Below are positions 33,872 to 49,137 of a DNA stretch of 64,000 bases, one piece after another; the first letter of the stretch is position 1, and each line of letters begins with the position of its first letter. A program made the position numbers and the translations under genes. The notes beneath the pieces were generated by a model. That model ran no database searches. It had not been told where the DNA came from and saw nothing but the letters and a program-made list of their open reading frames with translations. Source of the DNA: Acarospora socialis (lineage: Eukaryota > Ascomycota > Lecanoromycetes > Acarosporales > Acarosporaceae); NCBI GenBank assembly GCA_025617375.2, contig JAMYGW020000002.1:3348001-3412000 (forward strand). The letters run 5' to 3'.

Positions 33872-36800
33872 GTTAACGACTTAACCATCGAAGACGTTTC
33901 AGACGAGGTCGCTTCATGGCGACCTGCACGAATCACGAAGCGGCTCGCTCCGCTACCCGCTACGCGCCAAGCTCCTCCCGCATGTTTACTCCAGGCCCCT
34001 TCTCAGCGATCCGCGCTGTCAGGTGTACATCAACGTACGACTAGGAAGATGGTTAGTAACTGCCACTCGAACACTATGGTTATATGGAACTGAGATCTAT
34101 GCGGTGTTGAAGCGCCCAGCAAGGCGAAACTTGACCGAATCTTCACACGAGTCCCAGCAGGATCGAGATACTTTGGCGCGTACACTCGAGCCCGTTGGGT
34201 CAAATAATGTGGGTAGGAGAACACTTCGAACGCAAGCCCCAGGAGCAAAAATGGCGAAGAATACTCCCTACGGTACCGAATCGAAACGGAATCTGGCAGG
34301 AACGTCTGAGAGAAAAGTCCAGGGGTTTGTCGATCTGTCTCTAGTTGGACCAGGGGAGTCGACCAGGCCAAGGAAGAGGACTAGGGACGGTCGTTTTAAA
34401 GCCTCCTTCCCCAGTTCAAGCCGGACTAGCGAGAGACTCGATAGCCCTCCGAACTCCAACGAACGGAATTCGAGCCAGCTTGTGTTCGAGGCGGATCAAG
34501 AGCCTGAGGAGACAGGAGGAACGATCTCCCATGCGGTGCCAGGAACCAGACGTTCAACTACTCTCATGCAAGCATCAGCCCCCGCGAATACCATGAATGG
34601 ATATTTCCGAAAGAAGCCCTCCAGAAACGCTCGAGCTGTTAGGCACCCAGCACCGAACCAGCAATCACCACCATCTCCATTCGCGGGCGAGCAGATTGTT
34701 AGACATCGCACTCTACTTGCACCAACAAGGACGTACTCTACGTCACAATCAAGCTCTTCACTTCTTCGCTTGCGAGAGATGGGTCATGGGGGCAAATCTA
34801 GCTGGTCTGACGTGGATGGTACATCGTTTCGACTGAGGAGCCGGAGATTCAATAGTATGAAGCCTTGGAGAACATGGACTGGCGCTTCAAATGACGTTAT
34901 GGTTCTGGCTTGGTCCCCTGACGGTCAGTCATATGCGGCGGGCGCATCCGCACAGACAGATGAAAGCAGCATGATGTACAATCGGCCGAACAATCTTCTC
35001 TATGGCTCCTTACCGAAGAACACCATCTGGGAATTGCCTGACCATCTGATTGATCGTCCGCTACCAGCAACAGGGCCCAACTCGAACCAGGCCACATATG
35101 ACGCCTGCGATCCAAACCTCTATATGAGCGTGACATCCGTCCAGTTCTCAGCATCTGGAAAACGCATGTACTCAGCAAGCTATGATGAGACAGTTAAAGT
35201 GTGGGACACCTCAACCGAAGGTCGATTGCGTTGTTCGAACACTCTTCTGCATGATGCTCAAGTCGAGGTCATGGCGCTATCTGGTTACAGTAACGAGCAT
35301 CTAACAACTGGATCGCGACTGGTGCACAATGCAATCCGCGTTTACAAGTTGACCGACGATGGCTCCGTCTTGGGTCACTCAGCATTATCGTCTCTCAAAG
35401 CACAGACCAGCCCAGCACAGGAAATATATCCGTCCTGCTTGCAATGGGGTCTCAGTTCTAACAGCGAACACCTCCTCCTGGCGGGGTTTTCCGAGTCAAA
35501 AGTTAGAGATGACTCCTATGACCCCGGCAAGGTGGGTGATCTATGCCTGTGGGATCTCACTGCGGAAAAGCCTATCGAAGTTGTTCCCCGCGCGCAGAAT
35601 GTTTTTGACGTTGCCTGGCATCAGACTCTCCCTGTGTTCGCTGTAGGTACTGTACCTCGAGCGGGCTACATCTCCGACAAATCATGCCGTTCCGCTGTGC
35701 GTATCTACGAACCCATTAAAACGTCGTGGAGTAGCCTTGAGTTCGAATGCCCGGCTTTGGACATCAATGATGTCTCCTTCTGTCCCAATGACCCTCAGTA
35801 TGTTACTGCTGGGTGCACTGATGGTGTTACCTACGTCTGGGACTACCGGAAACCGGACACTGTGGTGCATCAGCTAGAGCATGGGCTTCCCATTGCTCCA
35901 ATGAAGCCTGACATGACACGAGAGCAGTCAGATACGGGTATCCGGCTTACTGCATGGGCCGACTCTGGCAGCCAGTTCTATACTGGCTCATCGGACGGCA
36001 TGATCAAAATGTGGAACATCAAACTGGCACCGGAGGATGTCCATGTTCGGGATGTAGCCCAGTTCGAGGCAGGCGTCATGTGTGGGGCATTTTCGCCGGA
36101 TTCTACCAATTTGCTAGTTGGGGATGCTCGAGGGTCGGTCCACATCCTATCGACAGCACCGGTTATACCATTTGATGACGACTTTGACAATGTAAAGCCA
36201 ATCAAATACCAGCATGCCAGAGGAGAAATTGGCGTGAGTGAGGTATCCGATGCTGTAAATCCAGATAACGATAACCCATCAGCTAAGGCAGCGCGTGAGC
36301 TCGTCACCAATGATGAGATAGTAATCCATCCACTTTGGGGCGCAGGGCAAGGCCCTAAATATAGAGGCCCATATGCCAGCTACGCCAGAGAGGAAGGGGC
36401 TGACCCCAGAACGGAACCACTACTGCCAAAATACCAGGCTCAGCAACTAGATTCTGGTCAAAGGGCTCTAGCTGCAAAGGCTGGTTCTTGGGCGGAACCT
36501 GCGGAGCAAAGAATTATTGCTGTGCAACACCAGCTGGCTAGGGCTCGAAACATGAAATCAGGGAAAGAAGATATGTCGCAAACAAAGTTTCCCATCCGGC
36601 TTAGTCCCGAAAAAAGAAATCAAGGAAGGCCACCAGAGCAACATAGCCAAAGTACCCAGCAGCCTCACCTAGACAAGCAACCCATCCAGAAGTCTGCAAA
36701 GCAGCGGTCAAGCACCTCAGATATCCATCAGTATGTGCAGACAAGTGCGCTACATTTTAAGAGAAGTAAGGCTCAGCAAAGGTCCACAGCTCATTTGCCC

Positions 36801-36905
36801 ACCGGGTTAGAGGTACACAAAACAGTGCAATTAAGTGCAAAGCAGAAAGCTACAGCAAGAACGGCTATTGTTATATCTTCTGATGAAGGTAGTGATAGTG
36901 AATAA
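33872..36905 (+). CDS. Large WD40-repeat protein, Rik1-associated-factor (Raf1/DIM-9)-like
   Basis: WD40 protein of at least 920 residues. It resembles the fungal group annotated as Rik1-associated factor 1, a CUL4-type complex subunit needed for H3K9 methylation. Family evidence is from memory and moderate. The disordered N-terminal ~250 residues are followed by blades such as VMVLAWSPDGQSYAAGAS, SVQFSASGKRMYSASYDETV, YVTAGCTDGVTYVWDYRKPD and FYTGSSDGMIKMWNIK. The tail is Gln/Lys-rich and ends VISSDEGSDSE. A frame open from 34023 covers the main part. However, an upstream open stretch (33872-34051, encoding LTIEDVSDEVASW) ends in a GTTAGT donor and joins in phase to an acceptor at 34112, so the ATG at 34023 is probably intronic. 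The first exon is unresolved. The gene ends about 285 bases from the retrotransposon island. Confidence 0.65.
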
Positions 36906-37185
36906 GATAGTTCTTGGTGAGACTGCATCACAAAGTCTTGATGAGATTGAGTGTAGATTTACTTGGATGAGTTTAGAGCAAAAATAAAAGTTCTAAACAC
37001 TTTCTTCAACAGCAGACATGTTATCAAAATCAGTTCCATAAAATAGCTTATTGTTAAAGAAATGAATGAGTTATAGCTATTTAGATAGATATAGGTCATA
37101 AAATTTACAACTAAGTTGATTTCTTCTTTGAGTTATGAACAAAGACACTTGACACTGCTCTGCAAGATCTTATCATACTTGTTAT
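36906..37185. other. AT-rich left flank of the retrotransposon island
   Basis: 3' flank of the WD40 gene. GG and CC steps are still present up to about 36975 and then nearly vanish before the LTR begins at 37191. Composition therefore shifts outside the element, as if hypermutation leaked into unique DNA. Confidence 0.55.
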
Positions 37186-37190
37186 ATCTT

Positions 37191-37541
37191 TGTAACATTC
37201 TAACCTGAGCTTTCTCAAGTATGTAGAACTAAGAATTGTGCTTATTGATATAATAACTGATCTGAAACAGTTCTGATCTTTAATTCTTAAATGATTATTT
37301 AAGTTGAACACAATTCTTTTCATAAGAGAAATAACTGTGACTATATACTGAGTCTGCTCATCAATCTCACTGTTAAGCTCATCAAGACAGTTCACTCATG
37401 CAACTCATTAAGTTTGCTCATCAAGCTCACTGTCAAGCATGTTGAGATGTCACATGATTGCTGTTTAAACATTTTCTGAATATACATCTTCTGCATGTAT
37501 GCATCAGTTCATTTTAAGTTCATTCTGACTTGATCATAACA
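37191..37541 (-). repeat. LTR of copy A, downstream end of the element
   Basis: A 351-base terminal repeat, the same length as its partner at 48452-48802. It is fully AT-shifted compared with that partner, which keeps C- and G-rich steps in its outer part. Confidence 0.88.
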
Positions 37542-40500
37542 CTATTTTTTTCTTCTCAGATGCTAGTTTTCTAAAATCTATATAAGTAAGAATATTCACA
37601 TTGTCTGTCATCAGCAACAATGCTTTTTAAAAATTCAAATTGTTTAAGAATTGCAAAGAAAATTCAAATTGATGATGTGTCTGCTCTGTTCTCTTGTGAT
37701 TATTGTGTTCATTGTGACATTAATTGTTTTGTAATGAAATCTTGATCAAAATGCAATAAATGTACTCATCATGATTATTCATGTGTCAATGTATTGTGAA
37801 AGTCTCTCAATAGAACTTGTCTTTCACTTCAAAAAAAAATAAGTAAAGCAAACAGCAAATTGACAGTTAAGCACACTGAGCTTGCTGCACTTTTCTTGAA
37901 AGTCATACACAAACTGTGTCATTAATAACAGTTGTACTCAGTCATTCTGATTTCTGTTGACATAGTGTTTCAAGTATGTCTTTACTGTTTGATTCATTCA
38001 TTTGCTTTGTTTATTCATCTGTGAGTGATATGTCATTGACATTTTATGCTTTATTTCAAGTTCTGCTGTAAGCATTTTTCAAAATCTGCTTGTAAACAGC
38101 TTGTCTTTATCAGTGATAAATTCTTTTGATAGTTCATGATTGTTAATCAATTCTTGTAGTATGATGTATGTCAATATTGATGCTGTTGTGATTTCTTTGA
38201 ATGAAATGAACATTGTGTACTTGATTAATCTGTTTACTATAATCAATATACTATTGAATTTCATCTTTCATGCTGAATCTTTTGACAATAATAACTTAAT
38301 AATGAAGTTCATGATAACTGATTTTCATGACACACTTGATGCATCAAGTTGTGTTACTTCATCATATTGTTTATTTCAATTAATCTTATTTCTTCAGCAT
38401 AAGTCACACACAGTAATCATTCTGATGATTCAATTTCTAAAATTGCTAATCTTATGTCTTCTCTGCACTAGATTCTCAGTGTATTTGACTTTTAAATGTT
38501 CATTGATTCTGCTGTAATGACACATTTTTATGAGTTCTTTGTTTGTCAAGAGAGCTTGCTTTATCTTGTACATTGTTGCTAAGTTTTTTGTGAGAACTTC
38601 TTTGTTGTCTTTGCTCAGAATTTTGATGTATATTATCTGTATATCTTTGTGATCAGATTGTCTGCTTAAGATATTTGTTTCATTATTTTCATTATTTTTC
38701 TTGTAATAAATCTGAAATTCATAGTCTGTCAACTACTTTGTTCAACAAACTTGTTGTTGATTGAGTTGCTTTATCATTGCAAAGTTTCTCAGATTCTTGT
38801 GATCTGTATAGATTTAAATTGATTTGTCTGTTTTTGCAAGATAAAATTTTCAATTTTGTGATGCTTTCACTATCACAAGAAGTTTCTTGTCATGTATCTC
38901 ATATCTTTTCTCAGATTCTGATAGCTTTTTAAATTGATACATTATGAATCTTTGTTGTTCATTCTCAATTTAATATAAACATACTTTTACTGTGAAATCT
39001 GAAGCATCAGTTTTCAGTATTTTCTTATATACTGAGTTGAGTATTCTCAGATGTGTCATTTCACTAAAACTTTTCTTTAATATATGAAATGCATTCTTCT
39101 GCTCTTTATCTCAATGTTATTTTTTGTTTTTGTGTGTCAAATGCATTAGTGATTTTGCAATTCTTGCATAGTTTGATATAAACTTTCAATAATAATTCAT
39201 CAATTCTAGAAAAACTTGTACTTTCTTGATTCTTTTTGATGTTGATCAATTTCTGACTGCTTTTATCTTCTTTGAATTCTTCTTGATTTGTTTAGATCAA
39301 ATTACATAGTCTAGAAACTCAACTTTCTTGATCTTAAATCTGCTTTTTGACTTTTTCATGTACAAGACTTTTTTGTTAAGCTTTGTTAACATCTTACACA
39401 CATGTCTTTGATGCTTCTCTAGATCTTCTGAGTATATTAAAATGTTATTAAGATATGTGATTATGAAATCATCAAAATACTCTCTTAATGTATCATTAAT
39501 CAATCTCTGAAAAATGATTGAAATATTTTTTAGTTCAAATGATATGACAATATATTCATAGTGTTTGTATCTTGTTCAAAATGCTGTTTTTCACTCTTTA
39601 TCTTCTTTTGTTCTGACTTAATAGTAGATGTCTTTAAGATTTAAGCTTGTGAATCATTTAGCTTTATTTAATCAGTCTTGCAACTCTTCTATCAGTGATA
39701 GAGAATAATTATCTTGATGAGTTATCTTGTTGAGTTGTCTGTAATCAACACATAGTTGTTTCTTGTCATTCTTCTTTGATATAAACAGAATTAGATATTC
39801 TGTCAGTGACTTTAATGATTTTATGAATTTTCTTTTAAGATTCTCATCAAGATAAGTTCTCACTTTCTTGAGTTGATCTTCACTCATTGAGTATAATTGA
39901 CATTCACTTAGATTGCTTTTCATTCAATAGCAATATCTCATGATTTCATGACTTATGCTCTGATAAGCTCATTTTTAATTGTTTGAGAATCTTGTATGTG
40001 TCTTTGATTGCATATATCTCTTTTGTAACTCAATTAATTCTTAAATTTCTTTCATGCAATCAGAACATTCTCAGTACTGCATTGTATTCAATTAATTTCA
40101 TAACATTGAACATTATCTTCTGTGAGTTTTCAAGAATTGAGACTTTCACACAAATTTTCTCATCAATTCTTTTGATGACTTTATTTATCATTTGTATGTT
40201 GAATGAACAGTGCACTCATCATGTCACTAATCTCAACATATTGATTATTTTTCAGTTCATAATGTTATCATCTGCTTTGAAATTCATCAATATGTTGATA
40301 TAATGTTCATTAATTGTAATCTTGATTCATATTTAATGATCATTGTCTTGTTTTTGAGACACTACTAGCTTCTTGTTCTCTAATCTCATCAAGAAAGCTT
40401 TTTATTTTTTGACTCATCTGATTGTTCAACTCATCTTTAAAGCTCTTGAAATCATCTGAGTTTTCTTTCAATTATGAGATTTACATACTCTAGACTGTGT

Positions 40501-41785
40501 CACTCAATGTGTCTTTCTGAGTGTAGTTGAAATTCATACTGATTGTATTTCATCTGCAATTGACTCTCAAAGACTTTTACTCTTTGCAAAAATTCAAATG
40601 ATATATATTCTTCACTGAAGATTCATCTGTCTTCATTTCACATGATATATTCTTTAGATAAGCATATCTTGACTTTGTGACTCTTTGTTCTTTAAATAAG
40701 AAATTTTGACAATACTGTGTTGTCACTGCTGAGACATTCATCTTTAACAGCTATCATCAGCTTCTTTAGTTGATCATATGTTTTTTGTTCTTTTACACTC
40801 TTGTGTTGCACTTTCTGTTTTCAAGCTTGCATCTCTTACTCAAGCTCTTCAAACTGAAGCTTTTCTTCTTTCACTGCTTAATGTTGATTCTCTGAGTGCT
40901 GATATGCTGTCTTCAGTTTTATATTAACTTTTCATTTATTGATTTCTTTCTGATCTGCATCTGAATTCAGTGCTTGTCAAGTGTTATTGCTGTAGTCTTC
41001 TTTTATCTGAGTTTCTCAAGTATTAATCTCTTCAATCTTGACATCAAGAACATCTTTCTTGATAAGAATAGCTAATTTTCTTTTGTAAACTGATCTATTG
41101 CATTTATCTTTGTTCTTTCTTCTAGACTTCTGTGAATATCATTCAGCTCTGTTTTTTGTGCTTATGTGTATTCTGCATATGTCATTGTAACAGACTGTTT
41201 AATTAAGAATGTCATGCACTATGTGTGTATTCTTCTTAACTGTCACTACAATGTTTTTTCTTTTTATTTGAGATCTGTTGCATTCTCAGACAAGATGTTT
41301 GAGTTTTCTGCAGTTATAACACATTCATATCTCATTTTGTAATATCATCTGAGACTTAGTGAATCACTCTAACTGATGTTCATACTCTGTTTATTTAGTT
41401 CTTTATGACTTCTGATGATGCTTCTTAATTGTGTTGAAATTTATAGAATTTATTTCTCTATATCTTATCAATAAAACATATCACTTCATTCATGATCAGA
41501 AGCTTTCTTCTTGATCTTTTATCATAAATGACATTCAATATTCTTTTTGTTTCATCTGTCATTTTCATTGACAACTATTAATATTGATACTCAGATTAAT
41601 CATTTTCTAAAGATTGTCTGATCATTCTGCTCAGACTATCTTGTCTTTGATGAACTTTTTCAATTCACAATAGTACTGATAGATAAGTGCTTCATTATTT
41701 CATTTAATGAGTGTCACTAACTGCTGAAACTCTGTGACATATACTGTCACTGATTTACTCTGTCTCAAGATGTAAACTCATTTCT

Positions 41786-42138
41786 TGTTACAATCAAGTC
41801 AAAATGAACTTAAAACAGACTGACATGTACATGCAAGAGATGTGCAGTCAAGACTGCTAAATAGCAGTCATGTGACATCTTGTTATGCTCAACATACAAA
41901 TGATAAGTTGAGCAAGCTGAAGACTTAACACACTCAACACACTCAACAGCAAGATCAGCAAGAGCTGACAAGCAAACTATCTATATAGTAGAATTATTTT
42001 TCTTATGAAAACAATTGTGTTCAACTTAAATAACTATTTAAAAGTTAAAGATCAGAATCATTTCAGACCAGTTATTATATCAATAAGCACAAATTCTTAA
42101 CTCTACATACTTAAGAAATCTCAGATCAGAACATTACA
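41786..42138 (+). repeat. 5' LTR of copy B
   Basis: A 353-base repeat beginning TGTTAC and ending ATTACA. It pairs with 47618-47970. Confidence 0.88.
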
Positions 42139-45100
42139 TTTTAAATATTCTTGCAATATAATGAGTATGATGTCTGACATACAAAAAAATGTTTTAACTT
42201 TGTTCTTGAAGCAAGTTTAGACAAACTCATCTTTACTATTTACTCTGAGTAGAATGATGACACAATCAATGATGATGTCAACTTAAACTATACAACTACT
42301 TCTGAGTGCATCAAAGATACAGATATCAGATATCTTTAATGAAAAGAAAGAGAAGCTGCAAGTCTTTGTGACTAAACTTAATCTGTACATTGAATTTAAT
42401 TAACTGAAGTTTTAAATCAATCAAGAAAAGACACTGTTCACAACAATCTATCTCATAAATACAGCTTTTAATTGAGTTGATCTCAAGCTGCACAAGTTTC
42501 TAGAAAAGAAGTATGAAGAATACAATACAGATATGAAGTTTATGTTTAATGATTACATATGATTCAAGAAAGAATTAAGAAGAGTCTTTGAAGTAATTAA
42601 CAAAGAAAGAACAGTCAAGAAACAAATTTACATCTTACAACAGAATAAATCAGCAGCAATATACATCACAGAGTTTCAGCAATTAGTAACACTTATTAAA
42701 TGAGATAATGAAGCACTTATTTATCAGTACTATTGTGAATTGAGAGAGATCATCAAAGATAAAATAATTTAAACAAAACAATCAGACAATCTTCAGAGAA
42801 TAATTAATCTGAGTATTAACATTGACAGTCATCAGTGAGAACAACAAATGAAACAAAAAGAATATCAAATGTCATCTATGATAGAAGATCAAGAAGAAAG
42901 CTTTTAATCATGAATGAAGCAATATATTTCATCAATAAGACATAAAAAAACAGATCTTATAAACCTTAATATAATTAAGAAACATCATCAAAAGTCATGA
43001 AAGACTAAATAAACAAAGTATGAATGTCAGCTGAAGCAGTTCACTAAGTCTCAGATAACACTGCAAAACAAGACACAAATATATTATAACTGCAAAAAAT
43101 CTGAACATCTTGTCTAAGAATGCAACAGATCTCAAATGAAAAGAAAAAACATTGCAGTGATAGTCAAGAAGAATACACACATAGTGCACAACACTCTCAG
43201 TTGAACAATCTGTTACAATAACATATGCAGAGTACACATGAGCACAAAAGATGAAGTCAGATAATATTCTCAGAAATTATGCAAGAACACAAAGAACAGA
43301 TATGATGCAATGAGTTAATCAATTTACAAAAAAGAATTAGTTATTCTTATCAAGAAAAGAGTTCTTAATGTTGAGAAAGAAGACAATGCTCTTGAAGATG
43401 ACATTGAGAAGACTGATGATTATGAATTTCAAATTGATGAATCTTGAATATTTTTCAATAGTAATACACTCACAGAAGAAAGTTCAAACAATGCTGAGAC
43501 AGAATTCTCAAAAGAGTATTGAGCAAAAATTAAGAGAGATCTAAGTGTTCAAAGAAAAACAGCATCAGACTGCAATGTGATGCAGAAAAGAAAGCAAAAG
43601 ACTTAAAATCAAAAAGCAGAGATATACAAAGAATTTGATGATCTAATGAGAGATATACAAACAGTCATGAAGAAATCAATATCAGAATCTCTTGTATGAA
43701 AAATTAAGAGTCACAAGATTAAGATATGCTTATCTGAAGAATATGTCACACAAAATGAAAACAAATGAATCTTCAGTGAAAAATATATATTATCTGAATT
43801 TCTGTAAAGAGTAAGAGTCTTTGAAAGTTAGTTGCAGATAAAGTATAATCAGTACAAACTCTGACTACACTTAAAGAAATGTGTTGAGCAGCACAATTTA
43901 AAGTATGTGAATCTCATGATCAAAAGAAAATCAAGATAATTTTAAGAACTTTGAAGATGAGCTGAACAATTAAGTAAATCAAAAAACAAAAAGCTTTCTC
44001 AACAAGACTAGAGAACAAGAAGCTAGCAATGTCTCAAAAACAAGACAATAATCATCAAATATGAATCAAGATTATGATCAACAAACATTAAATTAATACA
44101 TTAATAAATTCTGAAGCAAACAGAAATATTATGAATCAGAAAACAGTTAACATGTTGAAATTAGAGACATGATGAGTGTGCTGTTCATTCAACATACAAA
44201 TGATGAATGAAGTTATTGAAAGAATTGATGAGAAAATCTGTGTGAAAGTCTTAATTCTTGAAAATTCACAAGAGATAACATTTGATGTTATGAGATTGAT
44301 CAAATACAACACAGTGCTAGAGATATTCTGATTATGCAGAAGAAATCTGAAGATTGATTAAATTATAAAAGAAATATATACAATTAAAAACACATACAAA
44401 ATTTTCAAACAATCAGAAATGAGCTTATCAGAGCATAAGTCATGAAATCACAAAATATCACTATTGAACAGAAAACAATCTAAGTGAATATCTTTATACT
44501 CAATGAGCAAGAATCAACTCAAGAAAGTTAAAACTTATCTTGACAAGAATCTTAAGAGAGAATTCATAAAATCATCAAAATCATCAGTAGAATATTCAAT
44601 TCTGTTCATGTTAAAGAAGAATGACAAGAAATAATTATGTGTTGATTACAGACAACTCAATGAAATAACTCATTAAGATAATTATTTTCTATCACTGATA
44701 AAAAAGTTGCAAGATTAACTAGACAAGACTAAGTGATTCACAAACTTAGATCTTAAAAACATCTATTATCAAGTCAGAATGAAAGAAGATGAAAAATGAA
44801 AGACAACATTTCACATAAAATACAGACACTATAAGTACATCATCATGTCATTTAAGTTAAAAAATGCATCAGTCATCTTTCAGAGATTGATTAATGACAT
44901 ATTGAAAGAATATCTCAATGATTTTGTGATTACATATCTTAATAATATTCTGATATATTCAGAAGATCTTGAGAAGTACTGAAAGTATGTGCACAAGATA
45001 TTGACAAAGCTTAACAAAAGAGTCTTGTATGTGAAAAAGTCAAAAAGCAGATTCAAGATCAAGAAAATTAAGTTTTTAAACTATGTAATTCAATCTAAAC

Positions 45101-47617
45101 AAATCAAAAAGAATTCAAAAAAGACAGAAGCAGTCAGAAACTGATTAATATCAAAACAGATCAAGAAAGTACAGATCTTTCTAGAGTTAATGAATTATTA
45201 TTAAAAGTTTGTATTAAATTATGCAAGAATTGCAAAATCACTGATGCATTTGACACACAAGAGCAAAGAATAACATTGAGATCAAGAGCAGAAAAATGCA
45301 TTTCACATATTAAAGAAAAGTCTTAACAAAACAGCACATCTGAGAATACTCAATTCAGCATACAAGAAAACACTGAAAACTAATGCTTCAGATTTCACAA
45401 TAAAAGCATGTTTATATTAGATCAAGAATGAGCAACAAAAATTCATAACATATCAATTTAGAAAGTTATCAGAACTCAAGAAAAAATATGAGATTCATAA
45501 TAAAGAACTTCTTGCAATAGTAAAAGCACTACAAAATTGAAGATCTTATTTTGCAAAAACAAACAAATCAATTCAGATCTATACAGATCACAAGAATCTG
45601 AGAAACTTTACAACAACAAAACAACTCAATCAACAACAGATTCATTGAGCAGAGCAGTTGACAGACTATGAATTTCAGATTCATTACAAGAAGAATAATG
45701 AGAATGATGAAGTGAATATCTTGAGTAGATAGCTCAATCATGAGAAAATACAGATGATACACATCAAAATTTTAAGTGAAGATGACAAAGAAGTTCTCAC
45801 AAAGAACTTAGCAGCAATATACAAGATGAAGCAAGCTCTCTTGATAAATAAAAAACTTATTGAGATGTATTACTACAGCAAGATTGATAAATATCTAGAA
45901 ATTAAGTACACTGAGAATCTAGTGCAAAGAAGACACAACATTAGCAATTTTAGAAATTGAATCATCAAAATGATCACTGTGTGCAATTTATGCTGAAGAA
46001 ACAAGATCAATTGAGAAAAATAATATGACAAAGTAATGTGACTGAACACATTAGATGCATCATGAAAGTCAGTTATCATGAACTTCATTATGAAACTATC
46101 ACTGTCAAAGAACTCAGTATGAAAAGTGAGATTCAACAGTATATTAACAATAGTGAATAGATTGATCAAGTACACAATGTTCATTTCATTCAAAGAAATC
46201 ACAACAGCATCAGTATTGACATACACAATACTGTAAGAATTGATTAACAATTATAAACTATTAAAAGAGTTTATCATCAACAGAGACAAACTGTTTATGA
46301 GCAAATTTTGAGAGACACTTACAGCAGAACTCAAGATAAAACACAAGATGTCAACAGCATATCACTCACAGACAGATGAACAAAGCAAATGAATGAATTA
46401 AACAGTGAAAATGTACTTGAGACACTATGTCAACAAGAGTCAAGACAACTGAATACAACTGTTATCAACAGCATAGTTTGTGTACAACAACACAAGAAAC
46501 AAAATCATGAGAAAGACATCTTTCTATGTGAACTATGACTACAACTCAGAGATATAACAAGATTTTAAAGAACACAAATCACAGAGTCAAAAAGTAATTT
46601 TAGATATTGCACAGATGAAAAAACTGCATCAAGATCTAACAAAATAAATTAAACAGCAAATAAAACAGACAACAGAAGCAAAATCATTCAAAAAAGAAAA
46701 GAAAATATATTTAAAAATAAACAACATACAGACAAAAAAAAAAAGCAAGAAGCTGAAGAACAAGAGCATTGAATCATTTAAGATTATATGAAACATCAAG
46801 AAATTAAGTTATGAGCTAGACTTACTCAAGAAAATGAGAATACACTCAATATTTCACACATTCATGCTACAGCATTACAATCAGTTCATATTACTTTAAA
46901 TCAACAAAATATCTGTCAAACTCAACAAAGAATATGAAGTTAAAAACATTTTAAAGAAGAAAATGATTAACAGAAAAGTTCACTATCTCATTAAGTGAAA
47001 AGATTATGATATTTCAGAAAATATTTGAAAATCAAGAAAAAATCTCAAAAACTGCACAAGAACACTTCAATATTTTGAGAAAAGAAGTCAATATTAGTTC
47101 AGAAGAATGATGATATGAAGTCAATAAGTTACAACATTATTTGAGAATCTTCATTCTCAATCTCATCATTATCACTATTAAGCTCAGCAGCAAGACAGTC
47201 AATCTTCTGTGAAGCACAGCAATTTATTTGATTTAATATTTTTTAAAGACATACAACTTTTAAGAAAAGTACAGTAAGCTCAGTGTGCTTGACTGTCAGT
47301 TCACTGTTTGTTTTACTTATTTCTTTTCAAAGTAAAAGACAAGTTTGATCAAGAGACTCTCACAATACACTGACACACAAACAATCATAACAAGTACACT
47401 TATCACATTTCAATCAAAATTTCATTACAAAACAATCAAAATCACAAGAGACACAGTAATCACAGAGAAACAGAATTAAGACATCATCAAGTTGAATTTT
47501 CTTTGCAATTCTCAGACAATTGAAATTTTTAGAAAGCATCATTGCTGATAATGAGCAATGCAGATACTCTCACTTATATAAATTTTAGAAGATTAGCATC
47601 TGAGAAGAAAAGAATAG

Positions 47618-47970
47618 TGTTATGATCAAGTCAGAATGAACTTAAAATAGACTGATGTGTACACACAGAAGATGTGCAGTTGAGACTGCTAAACAGCAGT
47701 TATGTAACATTTTGCTGTGCTTAACATGCAGATGATGAGCTGAGTGAGCTGAGAACTCAATGTGCTCAATGCACTCAACAACAAGATCAACAAGAACTAA
47801 CAAGCAAGCTATCTATATAGTAGAATCATTTTTCTTATGAAAATGATCATATTCAACTTAAATAACTATCTAAGAGTTAAAGATCAGAACTGTTTCAGAC
47901 CAGCTGTTATATCAATAAGTACAAACTCTTAGCTCTACATACTCAAGAAATCTCAGATCAGGATGTTACA
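47618..47970 (+). repeat. 3' LTR of copy B
   Basis: A 353-base repeat beginning TGTTAT and ending GTTACA. It pairs with 41786-42138 and is followed by the target duplication TCTCT. Confidence 0.88.
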
Positions 47971-48451
47971 TCTCTTTGCTGCTCTTTTCTCATCAATTAC
48001 TTCAAAAGTCTTTTTTAATTCTTTCTTAAATCATACATAGTCATTGAACATAGACTCTGTATCTGTGTTGCATTCTTTATACTTTTTTTTCAGAAACTCA
48101 TGCAGCTTGAGATTGACTCAATTAAAGACTGTGTTCACAAGATAGATTGTTGCAAACAATGTTTTCTCTTGATTGATTTGAAACTTTGACTGATTGAATT
48201 CAATATATAAATTGAGTTTAGTCACAAAGACTCACAGTTTTTCTCACTCTTCATCAAAGACATTCAATATCTGTATCTTAAATGCATTCACAGATAGTTG
48301 TATTATCAGAACTGACATTACTGATTGTGCTGTCATTTTATCTGAAGTAAATGATAGAGATAAGTTCATCTGAACTTGTCTCAAAAACAAAGTTGAGACA
48401 TTCTTCTGTGTGTCAGACATCATACTCATTATATCATAAGAGTGTTCAAAG

Positions 48452-48802
48452 TGTAATATTCTAATCTGAGCTTTCTTGAGTATGTAAAGCTAAGAGTTGT
48501 GCTTATTGATATAATAACTGATCTGAAACAGTTCTGATCTTTAACTCTTAGATGATTATTTAAGTTGAACATGATTTTTTTCATAAGAAAAATGACTGTG
48601 ACTATATACTGAGTCTGCTCATTGATCTTGTTGTTGAGTCTGTTAAGATGACTTGTTCATGCAATCTGTCAAGCTTTCTCATCAAGCTCATTGTTGAGCA
48701 TGTTGAGATATCACATGACTGCTGCCTAAACATCCCCTGAATATATGTCTCCTGCATGTATGCATCAGTTCACCCTAAGCCCATCCTGGCTTGGCCGTAA
48801 CA
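48452..48802 (-). repeat. LTR of copy A, upstream end, partly unmutated
   Basis: A 351-base repeat. Its inner ~260 bases are AT-shifted like the rest of the island. The outermost ~90 bases keep CC, CCC and GG steps, so the composition boundary falls inside the repeat. Confidence 0.88.
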
Positions 48803-49137
48803 ACCTTTAAATTCTATCTACTGTAAGGCAGGGCTGGAGATAGGCAATCCGTAACTCGGTAGACCGCACCTAGTCCGGCTCAGGTAAGACCGATAACTCC
48901 GAGTTGAGACCGCCGGGACGGTTTAACGCCGATATGTTCACTGCCGGGTAATGGACGCCAACCCTGAGATGGAGCACCGCCTGGCGGGACGAGTTTGGTC
49001 ACTGATGTGTGATGGACAGCATGCTCGCTGTCTGCATATAAATATCTGCCTGTTTACCACGCAGTCGCCCGTCGAGACGGCCATCCAGTACAACAAGAAC
49101 TATCTCTGATTTTCTAGCCTTTACCACAAAGACGACC
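48803..49137. other. Promoter region of the second NmrA-like gene
   Basis: Normal GC content resumes at once after the LTR. Several short CGG/CCG-rich steps occur (for example TAGTCCGGCTCAGG near 48870), and a TATAAATAT box lies near 49037, about 100 bases before the start codon. No other gene. Confidence 0.45.

What the first reader, a model, noticed from the sequence alone, without database searches (positions are those of the whole stretch)
37191..48802. Hypermutation with a CpC/CpG preference instead of the classic CpA RIP context
Across about 11 kb, GG, CC and CG steps are almost absent while CA and TG remain abundant. When the two LTRs of the outer copy are compared, the differences are nearly all C/T or G/A transitions. 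They fall on C followed by C or G, while CpA and TpG steps are shared. Known RIP in Neurospora prefers CpA. This points to a different context preference of the RIP machinery here, or to methylation plus deamination. The contrast with normal flanking DNA is sharp.
Basis: seen in the sequence. Interest (0 to 1): 0.75.

Follow-up and report, generated by a model that had tools for sequence, protein, structure and literature searches.

The report
Repeat-silencing mutation sparing CpA sites
In this fungal genome, repeated DNA has been hit by C-to-T mutation wherever C is followed by C or G, while the classic target (C before A) is almost untouched, so standard detection indices score this heavily mutated DNA as clean.

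Summary
Between 37204 and 48725 only 5 CC/GG/CG steps remain; flanking windows hold 130-287 per kb. CA and TG stand at 1.56 times expectation. The region is two nested Ty3/gypsy-type elements; 21 of 24 other scored copies look alike.

Copies at different stages give the order CpG >= CpC >> CpT ~ CpA. Between two LINE copies 84 of 139 CpC but 13 of 452 CpA changed, with 7 transversions. Internal stops in 150 reverse-transcriptase matches are 84% TGA. RIPper-type criteria flag 0 of 22 region windows.

RID-like, DIM-2-type and DNMT5-type genes are present. Best reading: RIP with a nearly inverted context. Methylation plus deamination is not excluded.

Extra: a LINE family with open frames, clustered once on each of ten contigs, has few synonymous CpC and CpG sites but keeps CpA and CpT. 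It carries the imprint of this mutator yet remains breakable.

The parts
36890..37190 (.). Flank with strongly depleted CpC/GpG/CpG, apparently single-copy: spread of mutation out of the repeat
   Evidence: 4 such steps in 301 bp, GC 0.302, against 130-287 per kb in flanking windows; 36880-37188 matched only itself in the genome (an unmutated copy of such a sequence could be missed)
37186..37190 (+). Left target-site duplication, ATCTT
   Evidence: Differs from the right copy ACCTT only by CC to TC (read out)
37191..37541 (+). Left LTR of outer element, saturated
   Evidence: Direct repeat with the right LTR; 300 bp compared, 52 differences, 51 transitions; end inferred from the right LTR
37191..41787 (+). 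Outer Ty3/gypsy-type element, part left of the nested insertion
   Evidence: Aligns to the family member L014, whose open frame has RT_RNaseH, Integrase_H2C2 and rve domains
41788..47972 (-). Inner element of the same family, nested in reverse orientation, saturated; boundaries approximate
   Evidence: Inverted-repeat arms with the outer element and LTR pair 41786-42085 / 47618-47917, 52 differences, 52 transitions
47973..48802 (+). Outer element, right part with right LTR (48452-48802)
   Evidence: Inverted-repeat arm 47973-48318 and direct repeat 48452-48751
48725..48802 (+). Unmutated tail of the right LTR: mutation stops inside the repeat
   Evidence: 14 CpC/GpG/CpG steps in 78 bp after none in the preceding 764 bp
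48803..48807 (+). Right target-site duplication, ACCTT, unmutated

Best explanation
The region is a pair of nested LTR retrotransposons destroyed by a repeat-directed C-to-T mutator of the RIP kind. In this fungus its sequence preference is CpG >= CpC >> CpT ~ CpA, so CpS is the effective target (S = C or G). Both strands are attacked. Each CpG becomes TpG or, by a bottom-strand hit, CpA, and is then protected, because the product is CpA on one strand. CpC becomes TpC and GpG becomes GpA. The process runs until almost no CpS is left, at about 27-31% G+C, while CpA and CpT are eroded at roughly 1-4% of that rate. Shown here: context, saturation, repeat specificity, slight spread and abrupt edges, few transversions, presence of a RID-like gene. 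Inferred: that the RID-like protein does it, before meiosis, by sensing DNA homology.
For: Composition and near-total absence of CpS. In 30 gypsy-family loci, flanks included, 246 of 286 one-kb windows have at most 10 CpS, against at least 130 in the window's flanks.

Direct spectra. LINE copy L087 to L088 over 2719 bp: CpC 84/139, CpG 4/8 strand-cells (all 4 CpG steps), CpA 13/452, CpT 12/363, 7 transversions; reverse changes 5, 0, 4 and 8. Seventeen short LINE pieces against L069: CpC 130/707, CpG 11/68, CpA 20/2254, CpT 8/1564, 7 transversions (copies share ancestry and two are identical, so these are cells, not events).

Gypsy relative L014 to seven lightly mutated copies: CA>TA 211 against 186 in reverse (almost no excess), CC>TC 891 against 29, CG>TG 620 against 0.

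Simulation with CpA = CpT = 0.015 of CpS (values set by hand) gives GC 0.30-0.31, CA 1.47-1.69, TA 0.54-0.57 and the four main difference classes of the LTR pairs; a Neurospora-like setting gives CA 0.34-0.38 and TA 1.24-1.36.

Stops in RT-domain matches: 418 TGA, 60 TAA, 21 TAG. Same-strand neighbours share fate more than opposite-strand neighbours within 100 bp: 0.557 against 0.464, reached by 5 of 500 shuffles. Both strands are hit. A Tc1/mariner-type copy (L060) is saturated. Spread into flank. Methyltransferases: L009 (E 2e-191 to 9bap; that this is DIM-2 is recalled), L011 (E 2.5e-67 to 7r76, labelled Rad8; PMC7862722, passage, equates such fungal Rad8 with DNMT5), L010 with a methylase domain and no BAH found, RID-like.
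Against: No methylome, cross or mutant. RID identity of L010 rests on domain content and motifs recalled by me; none of its 36 structure hits is named RID, and the locus does not reach the gene's 5' end. Some repeats escape: near-identical open LINE copies persist, and L015 and several Tc1/mariner-type copies look unmutated. Three Tc1/mariner-type copies (L058 in part, L059, L061) are CpG-poor with normal CC/GG, which could be a separate CpG process. The L069 yardstick is not pristine: other pieces keep C where it has T in 16 TG and 23 TT cells. Strand patchiness is modest and rests on one copy; a looser test on CpG strand choice was also weak (0.042 against a shuffle maximum of 0.038 in 200). 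CpG strand choice agrees between gypsy copies at a mean of 0.65-0.68 instead of 0.5, unexplained; neighbouring-base effects are irregular.
Confidence: 0.72

Rival explanations
1. Heterochromatic cytosine methylation (DIM-2 and/or DNMT5) restricted to CpG and CpC in repeats, followed by ordinary deamination of 5-methylcytosine over time; no RIP.
For: DIM-2-type and DNMT5-type genes are present. Spread into the flank and confinement to repeats also fit. In Zymoseptoria, DIM-2 presence raises C-to-T change (PMC8016269, passages).
Against: CpC has no symmetric maintenance. In the LINE pair the CpC hazard is about 30 times that of CpA, with 7 transversions in 2719 bp. Saturation is near complete with an abrupt edge inside an LTR. 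Same-strand patches. In Zymoseptoria the methylation was CG > CA > CC and the new mutations CpA.
Confidence: 0.13
2. Two processes: CpG lost by methylation (DNMT5) plus deamination, CpC lost by RIP.
For: Light gypsy copies L017-L021 have 0-1 CpG but 48-122 CC+GG. L061 has CG 0.28 with CC 0.91 and GG 0.97; L059 has CG 0.53 with CC 0.98 and GG 1.33.
Against: In young LINE copies CpC and CpG are hit together: 130/707 and 11/68 strand-cells. Both losses share the same edges in the window. One enzyme with CpG faster than CpC gives the same light-copy picture.
Confidence: 0.1
3. A cytidine deaminase editing retroelement cDNA, as APOBEC3G does in mammals (CC context).
For: CC preference resembles APOBEC3G (recalled).
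Against: Both strands are hit (32 C/T and 19 A/G in the outer pair, 23 and 29 in the inner); mutation runs into flank and target-site duplication; a DNA transposon copy is saturated.
Confidence: 0.02
4. Classic CpA RIP, old age or plain AT drift.
For: Low G+C, C-to-T transitions in repeats.
Against: CpA is enriched, not depleted; RIPper-type criteria flag 0 of 22 region windows and 0 of 286 gypsy windows; the Neurospora-like simulation fails; few transversions argue against age.
Confidence: 0.01

Closest known systems
RIP of Neurospora crassa (RID, with a DIM-2 route)
   Same: C-to-T on both strands, repeats, limited spread to flanks, RID-like and DIM-2-type genes present
   Different: Neurospora preference is CpA>CpT>CpG>CpC (passage of PMC5496416); here the order is nearly reversed
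RIP of Trichoderma reesei, Aspergillus nidulans, A. niger and A. fumigatus
   Same: CpG among the targets
   Different: T. reesei CpA~CpG, then CpT>CpC (PMC5496416; one sign is lost in the held text); A. nidulans CpG and CpA (PMC2621366); A. niger and A. fumigatus CpG in addition to CpA (PMC4352252). These passages do not describe CpC high with CpA spared
CpG-type hypermutation in Microbotryum
   Same: CpG hit, no CpA signature reported
   Different: TpCpG trinucleotide, CpG signature only, Masc2-like gene and no RID/Masc1 class gene found (PMC4352252); here CpC is hit as well and a RID-like gene exists
RIP in a lichen fungus, Cladonia rangiformis
   Same: Strong, sharply bounded RIP, RID and DIM-2 homologues reported
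   Different: TE-derived DNA there peaks near 16% GC, below the about 29% seen here; its main text holds none of the words CpG, CpA, dinucleotide (PMC12542154, passages)

Membership tests
RIP (broad sense) | C:G to T:A transitions on both strands confined to repeated DNA | tested here: met
   two arbitrary host samples (L089, L090) and the window flanks normal; only a small part of the genome was sampled
RIP (broad sense) | RID/Masc1-type methyltransferase gene | tested here: inconclusive
   L010 has a methylase domain over two exon-like frames and no BAH found; RID subclass assigned by recalled motifs, no tree made
RIP (broad sense) | Occurs between fertilisation and meiosis and depends on RID | not testable with these tools
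   Needs crosses or parent-offspring sequencing
RIP (broad sense) | All copies above a length and identity threshold are hit | tested here: not met
   Near-identical open LINE copies persist, some identical over 753 bp
Classic CpA RIP | CpA/TpG depleted and TpA enriched | tested here: not met
   Substrate index 1.63, product index 0.65, composite -0.98
CpG methylation-deamination | Loss limited to CpG | tested here: not met
   CpC lost as thoroughly as CpG in saturated copies; three Tc1/mariner-type copies do show CpG-only loss, L058 in part
APOBEC-type cDNA editing | One-strand bias and confinement to the retroelement | tested here: not met

The most novel reading that the evidence does not exclude
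A RIP system with inverted specificity (CpS in place of CpA), together with a transposon that has co-evolved with it. A LINE family that clusters once on each of ten contigs (probably centromeres) keeps long open frames whose synonymous CpC and CpG sites are mostly gone (4.2 and 0.7 per kb in one frame; three host frames 30-33 and 38-48), while CpA is at host level and CpT just below it. Because the mutator has a defined end point, a coding sequence emptied of CpS offers it few targets. Immunity is not complete: stop-making CpC sites (6.6 per kb, host 5.0-5.9) remain, and mutated copies do carry TGA stops.
Probability: 0.4. Interest if true: 0.85.

Novelty: new variant of a known kind. Interest (0 to 1): 0.72.

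Why it matters
A 2025 survey of 1,239 genomes, using k-mers without a fixed context, concluded that RIP-like defences share a preference for CpA (PMC12543289, abstract and passages). The common index tool is built on CpA loss and TpA gain (PMC6714961, passages). Here saturated DNA scores further from RIP than normal DNA does (composite -0.98 against -0.27 to -0.52), so index-based scans would pass it over. If the RID-like gene is responsible, comparing it with CpA-type RID makes the question of what sets RIP specificity directly testable. The stop-codon effect changes too: TGA instead of the TAA/TAG that one paper expects of RIP (PMC3828140, passage).

Tried and rejected
Age as the cause of 83% LTR identity: rejected in part. 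The hand-set simulation gives 85-89% identity between two independently mutated copies of one sequence, so LTR distance is not a clock here; the remaining gap to 83% is not explained.

L014 as ancestor of the copies: not adequate. It differs from light copies by about as many TA>CA as CA>TA changes, so it served only as a relative. The first context count against it overstates CpA and CpT for that reason, giving 0.278 and 0.331. One search, the first attempt, gave no alignments because of a bad setting.

CpG strand-choice correlation as proof of patches: weak; the LINE pair gave a clearer but modest result.

The ITS region and an insertion near the SSU end look to me like a lichen-forming ascomycete, but this is recalled, not tested. 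Xanthoria, RIP and genome terms found 2 papers.

Literature for CpC-type RIP: ten searches, of which 15, 17, 24, 30, 66 and 77 used CpC, CpG or context terms. One search listed 20 of 429 papers and 15 of 3,371. I opened 15 papers, all as passages only (one also as outline and abstract); none of the passages seen described CpC with CpG as the main target. The library lacks most subscription papers; Clutterbuck 2011, the obvious survey, was not read.

Internal repeats of the neighbouring WD40-type frame as another mutation target: none found.
Full report
WHAT IS THERE. The window lies at 3,348,001-3,412,000 of contig 2 in a 31.1 Mb, 38-contig genome. Gene content and ribosomal DNA suggest a filamentous ascomycete (species not tested). 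An outer LTR element runs from 37191 to 48802. A second element of the same family sits inside it in reverse orientation, at about 41788-47972. A related copy elsewhere (L014) has an open frame with RNase H, integrase zinc-binding and integrase core domains in that order, as in Ty3/gypsy elements.

THE OBSERVATION. In 37191-48802 CC, CG and GG stand at 0.06, 0.00 and 0.01 of expectation, CA and TG at 1.56 and TA at 0.59; the flanks are normal. Between 37204 and 48725 five such steps survive. Two runs of 4.9 kb have none, whereas the longest run outside the region is 112 bp. The right edge falls inside the right LTR, 78 bp before its end. On the left, depletion reaches about 300 bp into DNA that matched only itself in the genome. 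The two target-site duplications read ATCTT on the mutated side and ACCTT on the intact side.

LTR differences are indeed transitions (51 of 52 and 52 of 52). They do not fall on visible CC or CG, because almost none is left. They appear as CA against TG (42 of the 102 with readable context), CT against TT (28), CA against TA (19) and CT against TC (8), with 5 others where one copy still has CC. CA against TG is the trace of a CpG hit on either strand. CT against TT or TC fits runs of C hit in different order plus slow CpT loss. CA against TA shows that CpA is not wholly immune.

GENOME-WIDE PATTERN. A DNA search with the left part of the element gave 67 matches; only 25 of 668 first-look candidates were scored, so this is a lower bound. 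Apart from the window, 24 copies (L024-L047) came with long matches: 21 of 24 loci have CG 0 and CC plus GG between 0 and 22; L024, L031 and L043 have more, in L024 and L043 mainly towards one end of the locus. Six lightly mutated copies found by another route (L017-L022) have lost CpG almost entirely but keep 48-156 CC plus GG in about 3.2 kb. L022 keeps 20 CpG, all in its first 600 bp, which look unmutated. Over L017-L022 and L024-L047, 246 of 286 windows hold at most 10 CpS and none meets RIPper-type thresholds; L048-L052 were left out because several overlap other loci. The window's flanks too are RIPper-negative, 0 of 101.

CONTEXT RATES. Against L014, seven light copies show almost no excess at CpA (CA>TA 211, reverse 186), little at CpT (361, 311), and large excess at CpC (891, 29) and CpG (620, 0). 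Eighteen heavy copies show CpA 1156 against 395 and CpT 1600 against 752, so slow loss there is real (sums over related copies). A cleaner test is a LINE-type family found through its reverse transcriptase (the LINE label is mine). Some of its open copies are identical over 753 bp. Seventeen other pieces compared with one of them (L069) changed at CpC 130/707, CpG 11/68, CpA 20/2254 and CpT 8/1564, with 7 transversions; reverse differences were 1 at CpC, 16 at CpG, 1 at CpA and 23 at CpT, so L069 itself has lost some sites. L087 (open frame of 957 codons) against L088 over 2719 bp gives CpC 84/139, CpG 4/8 strand-cells (every CpG step), CpA 13/452, CpT 12/363 and 7 transversions. CpC was hit less often after A (22 of 53) than after T (35 of 47).

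A MODEL THAT FITS. Simulated decay of three 2 kb pieces with CpG and CpC at rate 1 and CpA and CpT at 0.015 gives GC 0.30-0.31, CA 1.47-1.69, TA 0.54-0.57 and a mixed difference spectrum. The observed values are GC 0.289, CA 1.57 and TA 0.59. Zero CpA/CpT rate gives TA 0.40-0.42 and no CA/TA differences among the classes shown. Neurospora-like rates (values recalled) give the opposite composition. The parameters were chosen by hand, not fitted, so this is a plausibility check; observed LTR identity (0.827) is lower than simulated (0.85-0.885).

STOP CODONS. Among 150 listed matches to the reverse transcriptase family (150 of 435 first-look candidates were scored), 23 have no internal stop. The rest carry 418 TGA, 60 TAA and 21 TAG. 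In all frames of the hypermutated window region TGA is 916 of 1742 such triplets, so TGA is favoured beyond composition alone. This search does not depend on the mutated query. TGA is what CGA and TGG become under CpG and GpG loss. A published argument expects TAA and TAG, not TGA, from RIP (PMC3828140, passage). Copies share ancestry, so stops are not independent.

MECHANISM. Both strands, one saturated DNA transposon copy as well as retroelements, flank spread, abrupt edges and few transversions point to a repeat-directed mutator acting on chromosomes. Same-strand sites share their fate more than opposite-strand sites within 100 bp in L088 (0.557 against 0.464, reached by 5 of 500 shuffles; within 400 bp by 41 of 500), as expected if one strand is worked on locally. 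The genome has a DIM-2-type protein with a methylase domain and a BAH match just under its cut-off (L009), a DNMT5-type protein (L011) and a RID-like protein with only a methylase domain found (L010). Which of them acts, and when, is inferred. Targeted methylation at CpC and CpG followed by deamination stays possible.

AN ELEMENT SHAPED BY THE MUTATOR. In the open LINE frame of L087 (2.9 kb), synonymous sites per kb are CpC 4.2, CpG 0.7, CpA 42.5 and CpT 43.5. Three host frames have CpC 30.1-33.1, CpG 38.5-48.2, CpA 35.3-44.7 and CpT 45.4-53.5. Amino-acid-changing CpC and CpG sites are reduced too (40.8 and 2.8 against 89.9-97.5 and 60.4-79.1), but stop-making CpC sites are not (6.6 against 5.0-5.9). 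Chiefly the two mutator contexts are missing, so this is not general AT-richness. The simplest account is that the surviving lineage has passed through this mutator while selection kept its protein. Whether that counts as adaptation is open: mutated copies still gain TGA stops. One element frame and three host frames were compared.

COMPARISON. Known preferences are CpA>CpT>CpG>CpC in N. crassa and CpA~CpG, then CpT>CpC in T. reesei (PMC5496416, passage), CpG and CpA in A. nidulans (PMC2621366, passages), CpG signatures in Tuber (with CpA) and Microbotryum (PMC4352252, passages), and mitotic CpA change linked to DIM-2 in Zymoseptoria (PMC8016269, passages). A 2025 survey states that RIP-like defences share a CpA preference (PMC12543289, passages). 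I found no report of CpC with CpG as the main target in the searches listed under Tried and rejected; most subscription literature was not available.

VERDICT. A real and extreme case: RIP-like hypermutation with the context order nearly reversed. It works like RIP. Membership is partly tested; timing and RID dependence are untested, and the persistence of identical open copies does not fit a fully efficient RIP.

Noticed in passing
G000 contigs C1 2.65-2.80 Mb, C2 1.47-1.50, C4 1.99-2.00, C5 1.54-1.59, C6 0.65-0.69, C7 1.32-1.36, C9 1.25-1.26, C10 0.19-0.26, C11 0.93, C14 0.01-0.085 Mb: Matches of the LINE type (about 715-753 bp) to the reverse transcriptase family lie in one cluster on each of these ten contigs; probably centromeres. 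Contig C12 has one such match; C3 and C8 have clusters that include shorter ones.
   Followed up: partly
L058 (middle part), L059, L061: Tc1/mariner-type copies with CpG depleted but CC and GG near normal: an early stage, or a separate CpG process.
   Followed up: no
L013, contig C30 (27 kb): GC 0.68 with an integrase match; looks like a bacterial contig in the assembly.
   Followed up: no
L086, contig C28 20530-20680: A second 5.8S match with lower score; the 1 kb fetched there has normal CpC and CpG, so not hypermutated; could be another organism.
   Followed up: partly
L053 about 1855-2074: Extra sequence interrupting the end of the small-subunit rRNA gene, like an intron; I recall such insertions from lichen fungi.
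   Followed up: no
window 34023-36905 +: 960-codon frame with WD40 matches whose stop lies at the edge of the mutated flank; its last codons may have been altered by the spread.
   Followed up: no
gypsy copies aligned to L014: At former CpG steps copies agree on which strand was hit at a mean of 0.65-0.68 instead of 0.5; neighbouring bases explain it only partly.
   Followed up: partly
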